From Calditrichota bacterium (GTDB lineage Bacteria; Zhuqueibacterota; Zhuqueibacteria; Zhuqueibacterales; Geothermadaptataceae): 64,000 bases of DNA. The notes beneath the pieces were generated by a model that worked only from the letters and a program-made list of their open reading frames with translations, was not told the origin of the DNA and made no database searches. The DNA lies in NCBI GenBank assembly GCA_008501765.1, contig QQUE01000007.1, forward strand, positions 670,186-734,185, in the 5' to 3' direction. The translations under genes and the position numbers were made by a program. Below are positions 13,720 through 18,696 of this stretch, piece by piece (positions within the stretch are counted from its first letter, which is position 1; every line of letters begins with the position of its first letter).

Positions 13720-13849
13720 TGATAACGCTTGCATCTGGGGCTGCGAACGGGACAAGCACAGGCTTCGCACTATGCCAAAACTTCACCGAAGCCCCAAATT
13801 TCAATATTACAGTTGGCTGTTCGCAGTCTCAAACATGCTTGTGCTAGAC
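13720..13849 (-). repeat. attC-like element 1 (integron recombination-site-like)
   Basis: tgataac (13720-13726) ... ggctgcgaac (13739-13748) // gttcgcagtc (13819-13828) ... gctagac (13843-13849); 17 bp past the stop of the 13866-14819 gene; inner hairpin ggcttcg/cgaagcc. Confidence 0.5.
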
Positions 13850-13865
13850 AATTATCTACGTTTTA

Positions 13866-14819
13866 TTATGAATCCATAATTGCATTTATTTCTATTCCAT
13901 CTCCCCAGCATTCCATTTTTTTAGAATCAGATTGGCTCCAAAAATTGTCAATATTGCTATTTTGAAAATTCTCTCGAAGAATTGAATCCGTCAAGATCCG
14001 TCTATAAGTGTTTCTAGTGAGATGTTCAATTTGCCTCGTTCTCAACATTGCACGCTGCTCAATATTCTTAATAGAAATGTCGGGAAAAGCTTCGCTCCAA
14101 TCATGCATATGCTCAATTTTACTTCTCAAATCATAAACTTCACCTAAGGTGTTTGATGGATCGGGACTACATTTTAAAAATGTTTTGCACCTATGGATGA
14201 ATTTATTTCTTGTCTGGCCAATTGGTGGCTTAAGCAGGGCTTCGAGTGCTCTAACAAACTGATGAATTCTGTATGCAGGTTGAACCTCACTTAATCCTTT
14301 TAAAAATGCATTCACGCCTCGTAGTAATCGCGAGCATTCAGAGTTTTCGTTAATAGCTTTAAGCGCTTTGCTTATTGATAAAGCCTCCATCAATTTCGTT
14401 TTGCCGAATACGCTTGATGAAACGTTTTCGTTGCTGAAATATTTATTTGGATTCGAAATTTGTCTTATAACCGTAGAATTCGCGGCGTTTTCTCCAGTGA
14501 TAGCGCATGAATTGGACATATGATAATTTCCCGTAAATGGAATAGCAGTGTAAAACATCAATGCATTATCGAGTAACTCTGCACTTTCATCATCAAGTAT
14601 CCCAGGATTCGTAGAATCTTGGGCAATTAAAATGAATACGCCGCAATTTAAAATTTCTTCTATTCGTAGACTGCCAAGCCATTCTTTCCAGATATCTTTA
14701 ATCACGAAAGAGGGCTCGTTCATCACCCAAAACAAATCCATTTTGAGCGGCAAGGTAATAGCACTGCCATCAATCCCGTCAATAGCAATACAAACGAATT
14801 TTTGATTTTCTTTAAGCAT
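13866..14819 (-). CDS. Apea/HEPN-like domain protein, unknown function
   Basis: YRIHQFVRALEALLKPPIGQTRNKFIHRC and LGEVYDLRSKIEHMHDW; the RSKIEH matches the HEPN Rx4-6H pattern. Confidence 0.5.
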   Translation of the reverse strand: MLKENQKFVCIAIDGIDGSAITLPLKMDLFWVMNEPSFVIKDIWKEWLGSLRIEEILNCGVFILIAQDSTNPGILDDESAELLDNALMFYTAIPFTGNYHMSNSCAITGENAANSTVIRQISNPNKYFSNENVSSSVFGKTKLMEALSISKALKAINENSECSRLLRGVNAFLKGLSEVQPAYRIHQFVRALEALLKPPIGQTRNKFIHRCKTFLKCSPDPSNTLGEVYDLRSKIEHMHDWSEAFPDISIKNIEQRAMLRTRQIEHLTRNTYRRILTDSILRENFQNSNIDNFWSQSDSKKMECWGDGIEINAIMDS

Positions 14820-14832
14820 ACGATGGCTTCTT

Positions 14833-14958
14833 GTCTAACGCTGAGGTGTGCGGCCGCAAACAGCTGAGCACATCCTTTGAATTTATGTCAACTTATGCGA
14901 GCGAAAAATTCTGAAATCGAGCGGATCGTTTGCGGTCAAGAGCAGCAAAGAGTTAGAA
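14833..14958 (-). repeat. attC-like element 2 (integron recombination-site-like)
   Basis: gtctaac (14833-14839) fits RYYYAAC; ggccgcaaac pairs with gtttgcggtc; gttagaa (14952-14958) fits GTTRRRY at 6/7. Lies 14 bp before the start of the 13866-14819 gene. Confidence 0.6.
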
Positions 14959-15002
14959 AACAGCCCGAAAACTGAGAGAAGCCAAGACCGAAACCCACTC
15001 TT
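14952..15002. repeat. Direct repeat copy A adjacent to attC-like element 2
   Basis: gttagaaaacagcccgaaaactgagagaagccaagaccgaaacccactctt resembles 18528-18583. Confidence 0.7.
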
Positions 15003-16002: not shown

Positions 16003-16014
16003 AGTACTAACCTC

Positions 16015-18492
16015 TTATAGAAACATCAATCTATTGGTTAAGGGCTTTTTTTTACTTATTATTTGTTGAATAAGAAATACATCTTTTTTGTATCCCATAT
16101 TTTCTGCTAGCTCTCTAGTACTCTTTGCAAGTTTAACCCATCCTTTTTCTTTATTTACAATTTTGCATCTGATTAAGCCGATATTGACTTGTATTAATCC
16201 CCAAACCTGATTAATCTGACTATAAATTTGCTGTGCATCTCGGTAAGCTTCTTCAGCACTTCCTACATTACCTAACTGTAAAAAGCATTCGCCTAAGCCA
16301 AGGTGCGTGTGTCCAACCCATCCTTTTATCCCATGTTGGCTTGCTAAAGTTTGAGCATCTCTGAAGAGTTGTGCAGCCCTTTTATACTGATTCTTTTCGC
16401 GAGAAACTTCGGCTTTACAACATATTAAATATATCTCGTACCTTTGAAAATCATTATCTTTTGCTATATTTAGTCCCCAGTTACACATTTTATCAGATAT
16501 TTCTATGTGACCATAAAATTTCAATACTTCCGAATATTTTCTTAAAGACCTACACAGATAGCTTGGGTATTTTTTAGCTATTGCAAAGCGTATAGATTTT
16601 ATTAACCACTTTCGAGACAATTGAAAATCACCAGAAAGAATCCCTAAATTACCACCAATCATAAACAAAAGTTCACCATATCTCATTGGAAATTTATCTA
16701 TATCTATTTTTTCTGCTAGTTCTATCAAATCCTTAATTAAAGGGTTTACTGGTTTAAAGAACATCTGGTGGTGAACCCTGCGTATACTTAAATGCAATAG
16801 CTCATCAGATAAAAGAATTTCTTCCGATGAATATCTATTGAGATATTTTGTAATTAGTGCTACTGCCTTTTCATAATCACCTCTTAAATGTGTCATATCC
16901 ACGAATATACTAAAAAGTTTCACATCTAAATTTTGAAGGTTTAAGTAATCTATTGTTTCCTGTAGGAAAGTATGTAGAAAATCTGCCGCACCACATAATT
17001 GCAAATACTTGAGAAAAGTATACTTTTTATCAGACAGCCATTGCTGATAGTTACTTTTGGATAGGTGATTCATATGATGGTAATTTGCTTCTAAAAATAG
17101 ATCCATCAATGAATCTTGTGTATAGAGGTTTTTATTCGTTTCTAATTCATGGTCATAATATAATGCAATCAAACTATGTATTTTCTTCAAAAAACGTTTT
17201 TCTAGTACATGTTTCAACCCTTCTCTCATTAGATCATGAATAAAATATTGATCTTTTTCATGCTTGATAAATGAAAATCTATTGAATTCATCAAACTTAG
17301 AGAAGGGATATCCTACGTTAAATTCTGATATTAATAGTTCGAAAATCTCATAATTATAATAACGAGGTATTGAGAGTAGCTTCAGAGATTCAATTTCTGA
17401 TTCTTTCAAGTTTCTTAGAAAAAGATCTAGAATGTGTATGTTTCTAGAACTAAACTCTCGTGATACTATTTTTTTGCCTTGATTCTTTAACTCATAATAG
17501 GTATCAATAGCTAAGTCTAAATAATAGGGGTGCCCGTTACTTAAAGAGATGATTTTTTTTCTAATATTATTTTCAGCAATACCACAACTAACCAAAAATA
17601 AATCAGCGTCTTTTTCACTTAAATTATCAATTAAAAATTGTTTATTACAAGTTCCCCATTCTGGCTCAATTTCTTCCCACCGTAGTTTTTCTCTTCCCGA
17701 TATAACAAAAAGGATCCCAGGCAATTGCGCTATTAGTTCCCTTATCCATTTATCACGTGCAAACTGATTTGCTTCTGTTCGTCCACTTTCCCAAAGAGCT
17801 TCATAAGTATCAATAAAAATAACAAAACCAGGTATATTTTTTTTCTTAAGTGAACGTTGAATATCATAGGAGAAAAACGCGGGTAGGCGTTCTTCTATCT
17901 CAATAGTTGACATTTTTTCCAAATCAGTTAAGTCTTTTTTTACTTCCTTATCAAGTCCATACTTAGAAAATAATTTATACACTTTACCAACAATTCCTGT
18001 AACAGTTCCAGCGATACCTAGTCCGTCAAAAGCACCTAAAATATTTCCTAAAAGACTAGCTTCTTCTTCATATGGCAGATTTTTTTCATTAAAAACTAGG
18101 TCTGGATTTTTCTTTTTAAAGTAAATTGAATATGCAAGCTCAAAATGTGGTGTAATAACTTTTTTATTACTAACGATATTTCTTTTTAATTCTAAGAGTG
18201 CTCTTGACACTATGCGATACGAAGGATCTGCAAAATTTACTGCAGTACAAACTAAATTCGAATCGATATCAAGTAAATCTTTTTTCAATTGCTTTATCAA
18301 ACTACTTTTACCAACACCTCCAACACCATAAAACATTAATACTGAGTATGTTATATTAGCTTTCGTCCGAGGAGCTAATTGTTTTACCTTTTCAAAGAAG
18401 ATACTACGTTGCATCTCCCTATTAATAAACTCTTTATTTACATACCGTACTCTTATCTTTTTACCAACTTGATAATTTGGAGATATTGGCAT
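16015..18492 (-). CDS. STAND-type P-loop ATPase with C-terminal TPR-like repeats
   Basis: Walker A GVGGVGKSSLIKQL, Walker B-like FVIFIDTYEALWE, LFVISGREKLRWEE sensor-like motif, TPR-like C-terminus; ends 12 bp before the cupin-Nudix start. Confidence 0.8.
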   Translation of the reverse strand: MPISPNYQVGKKIRVRYVNKEFINREMQRSIFFEKVKQLAPRTKANITYSVLMFYGVGGVGKSSLIKQLKKDLLDIDSNLVCTAVNFADPSYRIVSRALLELKRNIVSNKKVITPHFELAYSIYFKKKNPDLVFNEKNLPYEEEASLLGNILGAFDGLGIAGTVTGIVGKVYKLFSKYGLDKEVKKDLTDLEKMSTIEIEERLPAFFSYDIQRSLKKKNIPGFVIFIDTYEALWESGRTEANQFARDKWIRELIAQLPGILFVISGREKLRWEEIEPEWGTCNKQFLIDNLSEKDADLFLVSCGIAENNIRKKIISLSNGHPYYLDLAIDTYYELKNQGKKIVSREFSSRNIHILDLFLRNLKESEIESLKLLSIPRYYNYEIFELLISEFNVGYPFSKFDEFNRFSFIKHEKDQYFIHDLMREGLKHVLEKRFLKKIHSLIALYYDHELETNKNLYTQDSLMDLFLEANYHHMNHLSKSNYQQWLSDKKYTFLKYLQLCGAADFLHTFLQETIDYLNLQNLDVKLFSIFVDMTHLRGDYEKAVALITKYLNRYSSEEILLSDELLHLSIRRVHHQMFFKPVNPLIKDLIELAEKIDIDKFPMRYGELLFMIGGNLGILSGDFQLSRKWLIKSIRFAIAKKYPSYLCRSLRKYSEVLKFYGHIEISDKMCNWGLNIAKDNDFQRYEIYLICCKAEVSREKNQYKRAAQLFRDAQTLASQHGIKGWVGHTHLGLGECFLQLGNVGSAEEAYRDAQQIYSQINQVWGLIQVNIGLIRCKIVNKEKGWVKLAKSTRELAENMGYKKDVFLIQQIISKKKPLTNRLMFL

Positions 18493-18527
18493 TATACATT
18501 CCTCTATGCTAGCGATCTTATGGAAAT

Positions 18528-18583
18528 GTTAGAAATCAACCTGAAAACTGGTGGAAGCTAGACGGAAGCCGGAGACCACTCTT
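18528..18583. repeat. Direct repeat copy B at the upstream edge of the STAND operon
   Basis: gttagaaatcaacctgaaaactggtggaagctagacggaagccggagaccactctt, matches 14952-15002 with substitutions and a small indel. Confidence 0.7.
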
Positions 18584-18696
18584 TCTTTTTGTTTCTATTG
18601 AGAACTAAAAATATAAGTGAATCTTTCCTTGGTATCTGTCTTAAGCTTATCTGAAATAAACATCAATTCGGATACAAACGCAACCCGTTTCGATCA

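What the first reader, a model, noticed from the sequence alone, without database searches (positions are those of the whole stretch)
13720..18600. Candidate integrase-less integron cassette cluster (CALIN-like)
Seen: two long imperfect inverted repeats (13720-13849 and 14833-14958) share a layout. Outer boxes resemble RYYYAAC / GTTRRRY (gtctaac...gttagaa; tgataac...gctagac). Inner arms are ggctgcgaac/gttcgcagtc in one and ggccgcaaac/gtttgcggtc in the other. The sequences differ but stay self-complementary, i.e. they covary, which is the behaviour of attC sites. The elements sit 17 bp after the stop and 14 bp before the start of a single minus-strand gene, the compact geometry of gene cassettes. 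All genes in the block point the same way, opposite to the preceding M1-M28 gene. Established: attC sites are conserved in structure rather than sequence, and arrays without intI are called CALINs. Inference: this block is or was a cassette array.
Basis: partly seen in the sequence, partly recalled or inferred. Interest (0 to 1): 0.8.

Follow-up and report, generated by a model that had tools for sequence, protein, structure and literature searches.

The report
Integron gene-cassette cluster without local integrase
Two folded recombination sites around a gene are genuine integron cassette sites, one of several small cassette clusters scattered through the genome of an uncultured bacterium (probably candidate division KSB1) that keeps its one intact integron integrase elsewhere; this is a known kind of element in a little-studied group.

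Summary
Both elements are integron attC sites on the minus strand. A covariance model built only from sites elsewhere in this genome and a same-genus genome finds exactly these two in the 64-kb window: 14833-14958 (E2, 96.3 bits, E 1.7e-22) and 13720-13849 (E1, 40.6 bits, E 5e-8); the next hit scores 11.4. A model from integrase-linked attCs also picks E2 as its only window hit. Stem bases covary, and the AAC-15 nt-A spacing of attC is kept.

The block holds one clear cassette (13866-14819 plus E1), a probable large two-gene cassette (15103-18492 plus E2), and a truncated copy of a third site (about 18528-18590). No integrase lies nearby, so it fits CALIN, but the genome has one intact integron integrase on another contig, beside an attC of the same family. 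At least six further places carry attCs or clusters. A same-genus genome has family sites at other loci, has something else beside the flanking gene, and lacks gene 1.

Ordinary in kind. The one odd detail is a ~45-bp extension conserved outside R'' at about half the sites.

The parts
13720..13849 (-). attC site E1 (R'' GTCTAGC ... R' GTTATCA), end of the array; R'' core has AGC instead of AAC, so probably weakened
   Evidence: R3 40.6 bits E 5e-8; R2 34.2 bits; local shuffles 20/5000
13866..14819 (-). cassette gene 1, 317 aa, no Pfam or PADLOC match; family has an invariant RSxxEH (R-x4-H) motif, reminiscent of HEPN (inference only)
   Evidence: confident model (pLDDT 89.5) without a PDB fold match
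14833..14958 (-). attC site E2 (R'' TTCTAAC ... R' GTTAGAC), boundary between the two cassettes
   Evidence: R3 96.3 bits E 1.7e-22; R1 19.5 bits, only hit in the window; scanner 38.4, 0/798 shuffles
14959..15005 (-). about 45-bp extension outside R'' of E2, conserved at about ten attC copies in this genome and G002
15103..16002 (-). cupin + NUDIX hydrolase gene (299 aa), probable cassette gene
   Evidence: Pfam PF00293 73.8 bits; PADLOC PDC-S07 over the NUDIX part
16015..18492 (-). 825-aa protein: N-terminal P-loop (STAND-like) region plus MalT-like TPR repeats; relatives scattered over several phyla
18528..18590 (-). truncated copy of the R'' end and extension of an E2-type attC (stem-loop missing): remnant of a third site
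   Evidence: 77% over 44 bp to the E2 flank; pattern match to the family motif; flank score p 0.0003

Best explanation
The block 13.72-18.59 kb is a small, partly decayed chromosomal integron cassette cluster (CALIN). Read on the minus strand it is: attC remnant - [STAND/TPR gene + cupin-NUDIX gene] - attC E2 - [gene 1] - attC E1. An integron integrase (IntI) recognises the folded bottom strand of an attC and cuts between the G and TT of R' (established knowledge), so cassettes can be excised as circles and reinserted. The only intact IntI found in this genome is on contig C16, next to an attC of the same family, so mobilisation would be in trans. The cluster most likely arose by IntI-mediated insertion of cassettes at a non-attI chromosomal site, or is a left-over of an older array. 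Shown here: attC structure, covariation, family membership, array orientation, integrase in the genome, lack of synteny. Inferred: that IntI acts or acted on these sites, how they reached this locus, that the 3.4-kb two-gene unit moved as one cassette, and that E1 (R'' core AGC) is now inefficient.
For: Window-independent covariance models find E2 and E1. Seven of nine stem pairs change on both sides across 15 attCs including E1 and E2; pairing 88.7% against 69.4 +/- 2.1 shuffled and at most 47.8% in slid controls; same on 8 family sites without the window. AAC-15 nt-extrahelical A and 14 nt-GTT spacing equals that of integrase-linked attCs. All 15 attCs with an upstream ORF follow a gene read in the attC's own direction, and most internal sites are followed by a start codon within 13-44 bp. 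Sequence similarity between copies stops at R', where IntI would cut. Same genome: IntI with a linked attC, clusters or attCs on C3, C5, C10, C11, C13, C14:351 kb, C15. No conserved synteny.
Against: Folding energies of E1 and E2 are no better than shuffled. E1 is missed by the generic model R1. The gene 1 family in other phyla is not flanked by attC. The two-gene cassette is unusually large. No empty site was seen: the G001 contig ends 219 bp past the flanking gene.
Confidence: 0.93

Rival explanations
1. A dispersed hairpin repeat (MITE- or REP-like, about 175-190 bp) that only resembles attC and spreads by a transposase, landing near gene ends.
For: Copies share loop sequence and about 45 bp outside R'', more than structure-only conservation would need.
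Against: Similarity ends at R'; the copies carry the attC extrahelical A, spacing and R boxes shared with integrase-linked sites of other genomes; upstream genes always point into the site, 15 of 15; the integrase-linked attC on C16 matches the same model (39.6 bits). Conserved loops are also normal for lineage-specific attCs.
Confidence: 0.05
2. Chance inverted repeats or transcription terminators around ordinary resident genes.
For: Energy z-scores are unremarkable; a plain repeat search did not report them.
Against: 0/798 shuffles for E2; E 1.7e-22 and 5e-8 with a window-independent model; sequence family at several genomic sites.
Confidence: 0.01
3. A complete integron split by assembly, so that the integrase is only apparently absent.
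For: The C16 integron lies at a contig end.
Against: The window lies at 670-734 kb inside a 1,016,739-bp contig with chromosomal genes on both sides; other clusters are also inside contigs.
Confidence: 0.01

Closest known systems
[quoted passage not shown] IntegronFinder 2.0, PMC9024848)
   Same: [quoted passage not shown] CALINs away from the integron locus occur in about half of Xanthomonas genomes (PMC12444791)
   Different: Sites form a lineage-specific family with an extra conserved ~45-bp stretch outside R''; one of the two sites is degenerate; probably candidate division KSB1, for which no integron paper was found in the library
Lineage-specific attC families (taxon-specific attCs, PMC8352920; Vibrio cholerae repeats)
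   Same: Similar length (about 126-133 bp) and conserved loop within one lineage
   Different: Spread over several loci instead of one long array; conservation runs past R''
Cassette insertion at attG sites (Loot 2024, as cited in PMC12444791 and PMC12901181)
   Same: Would explain cassettes at scattered non-attI positions in a genome with IntI
   Different: No pre-insertion site could be compared here, so this route is only inferred

Membership tests
attC site | R'' (RYYYAAC) and R' (GTTRRRY) boxes that pair | tested here: met
   E2 TTCTAAC/GTTAGAC; E1 GTCTAGC/GTTATCA with a G-U pair and weaker outer pairs
attC site | L''/L' stem with extrahelical base at fixed spacing | tested here: met
   AAC-15-A and 14-GTT in both, as in integrase-linked attCs
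attC site | Covariance-model score above background | tested here: met
   Own models: R1 finds E2 only; R3 finds E2 and E1. The published IntegronFinder model was not available
attC site | Recombination by IntI through the folded bottom strand | not testable with these tools
   Needs a recombination assay
CALIN | At least two attC sites close together in one orientation | tested here: met
   E1 and E2, 0.98 kb apart, both minus strand
CALIN | No integron integrase nearby | tested here: met
   The only hit over the TIGR02249 cut-off in the genome is on contig C16; weak tyrosine-recombinase hits on C14 lie about 47 kb away
Complete integron | intI and attI next to the array | tested here: not met
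   No intI near the block
Gene cassette | One (rarely two) ORF ending just before attC in its direction | tested here: met
   Gene 1 stop 16 bp before E1; gene 2 stop 144 bp before E2

The most novel reading that the evidence does not exclude
The mobile 3' end of cassettes in this genus is larger than a classical attC: attC plus a conserved ~45-bp leader outside R'' travels as one unit and has been joined to different genes, which would be a trace of how new cassettes are made, with the genome acting as many scattered mini-arrays served by one integrase.
Probability: 0.2. Interest if true: 0.6.

Novelty: new member of a known kind. Interest (0 to 1): 0.42.

Why it matters
It shows active-looking integron biology (intact integrase, lineage-specific attCs, several dispersed cassette clusters) in a probable candidate division KSB1 genome; 30 of 61 genomes of the class have an integron integrase over the curated cut-off. 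The clusters mark which genes of unknown function are recently acquired. The conserved leader outside R'' gives a handle on the open question of how an attC becomes attached to a new gene.

Tried and rejected
Rfam has no matching family. A plain inverted-repeat search does not report the elements. A first naive attC scanner required AAC and missed E1. R1 with filters off lost even E2, and the genome-wide R1 search missed known sites, so absence in that search was not used as evidence. The hairpin at 18698-18735 was tested as a further attC and did not score. An attC-like hairpin in same-genus G001 (L088 84-213) scored at background (17.1). Gene 1 homologues in other phyla and the one truncated copy in the class were checked for attC: none. 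A PDB fold search for gene 1 gave nothing. A terminator or structured role for the conserved leader: alignment folding energy near zero.

Full report
What was claimed.

Check of the observation. The elements, boxes, arms and gene spacing are as described. Two statistics exclude chance for 14833-14958 (E2): a scanner based on attC geometry, trained on 16 attCs from outside the window, gives 38.4 on the minus strand against at most 32.4 in 798 shuffled windows, and only 24.2 when read on the other strand; covariance model R1, built from 11 attCs found in integrase-bearing loci (one of them from this genome's C16, ten from other genomes), has E2 as its single hit in 64 kb, at a modest 19.5 bits, E 0.041. 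13720-13849 (E1) is weaker: second best of the minus strand, 20 of 5000 local shuffles as good, missed by R1. Its R'' core reads AGC where attC normally has AAC.

The decisive step was the genome. The window is G000:C14:670186-734185 of a 5.92-Mb, 21-contig genome. A DNA search with the region upstream of the STAND gene showed that E2 and the 45 bp beside it recur on C3 and C13. Those copies are themselves attCs by geometry and sit in same-strand gene arrays. A model built on them (R2) found more: C15:136339-136467, C14:351190-351317, weaker ones on C11 and C10, and several in same-genus G002, but none in G001, G004, G007 or G008 and only one weak hit in G003. Model R3, built from eight such sites with no site from the window, returns E2 at 96.3 bits (E 1.7e-22) and E1 at 40.6 bits (E 5e-8); the third hit in the window is 11.4 bits. 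The same model finds the attC beside the integrase on C16 at 39.6 bits, its only hit in 881 kb of other sequence.

Structure. On 15 attCs including E1 and E2, 88.7% of pair cells are standard pairs (shuffled 69.4 +/- 2.1; slid controls at most 47.8), with changes on both sides in seven of nine stem pairs. The eight sites without the window give 95.8% against 81.9 +/- 2.2 and eight pairs with double changes, 0 of 500 shuffles reaching it. The spacing AAC-15 nt-extrahelical A and inner stem-14 nt-GTT is the same in E1, E2 and the integrase-linked attCs. Folding energy alone is not remarkable for E1 or E2, so the case rests on covariation and family membership.

Array logic. Every one of 15 attCs with an upstream ORF has that ORF ending towards R'', and most internal sites have a start codon 13-44 bp after R'. 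Similarity between copies stops at R'. In the window this gives, on the minus strand, [STAND-TPR gene and cupin-NUDIX gene]-E2-[gene 1]-E1, preceded by a truncated R'' end at about 18528-18590. That the two-gene unit of about 3.4 kb is one cassette is inference.

Integrase. TIGR02249 matches one full-length protein, C16:2427-3368, at 448 bits, over the curated cut-off; PDB 2a3v, a solved integron integrase, matches it over 308 residues at 315 bits, with the HALRHSFATHLL motif and the Y of IYTHV in the alignment. The cassettes on C16 lie downstream of intI on the same strand, at a contig end. The window cluster is inside a 1.0-Mb contig, so its lack of an integrase is not an assembly gap.

Relatives. 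In G002 the M1-M28 orthologue is followed by PAS-kinase genes; in G001 the contig ends 219 bp past it, and the DUF4412-aminotransferase pair lies beside a thioredoxin-like gene instead. Gene 1 is found in one of 60 relatives, as a truncated copy without attC. Its best full-length homologues are 34% identical and, in Nitrospirota, Acidobacteriota and others, are not flanked by attC. So the genes vary between neighbours, as cassette genes do, though gene 1 is not exclusively a cassette gene.

Organism. G003, of the same family, has an integrase contig of 95,075 bp, equal in length to the contig of a protein named as from a candidate division KSB1 bacterium (P0209). The assignment of G000 to KSB1 is therefore an inference. 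No paper in the library mentions integron, attC and KSB1 together; the library is partial.

Known background. IntegronFinder 2.0 defines CALIN by two or more attC sites without integrase (PMC9024848); Xanthomonas genomes commonly carry CALINs away from the integron locus, and cassettes can be mobilised in trans or inserted at attG sites (PMC12444791); attCs are known to be taxon-specific in sequence and structure (PMC8352920).

What is unusual. About ten sites, including E2 and the remnant, share roughly 45 bp outside R'' (CTTCGG..CTGGCTTTTCTCAGTTTTCAGGCTGTT; most at p <= 0.003 and one at 0.011 against background 60-mers), while E1, C16, C5, C3b, C10 and C11 do not clearly do so. It lies inside the cassette between gene and attC, and has no evident structure. 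It may mean that attC and leader were copied together onto different genes, or only that these cassettes descend from a few ancestors whose genes were replaced.

Verdict. New member of a known kind.

Noticed in passing
G000:C16:2427-3368 (L007 2424-3515, minus): Full-length integron integrase with cassettes downstream on the same strand (methyltransferase gene and a 265-aa gene) and an attC between them; the array runs into the contig end.
   Followed up: yes
L085 (G000:C5) 5889-7552: Another cassette cluster: RibD_C/DHFR-like gene and a 2-oxoacid dehydrogenase acyltransferase-like gene separated by an attC of 37.3 bits, with a degenerate second site.
   Followed up: partly
L170 (G000:C13:188001-204000) 4318-9933: Cassette array with three attC sites and same-strand genes, larger than the one in the window.
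   Followed up: partly
L171 (G002:C616) 317-2636 and L194 (G002:C728): Same-genus attCs of the same family at other loci, one followed directly by a GNAT-like acetyltransferase gene (named from its sequence, not tested).
   Followed up: partly
window 18698-18735: Clean hairpin GTTGCATAGGTGG/CCACTTATGCAAC followed by AACGTTGGGG; does not score as attC.
   Followed up: partly
L007 5460-6870 (G000:C16): Arrays of ~47-bp tandem repeats (CGATACTTTTCGCTTAAAAAGCAAGCGAAACACTCGGGATGCCGCGGTG), themselves repeated in three blocks, on the far side of the integrase gene.
   Followed up: no
window 9768-10217: DUF6036/AbiEii-like nucleotidyltransferase gene just upstream of the M1-M28 gene.
   Followed up: no
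window 13866-14819 (gene 1 family, alignment A3): Conserved uncharacterised family with invariant RSxxEH and a confident fold model that matches nothing in the PDB.
   Followed up: partly
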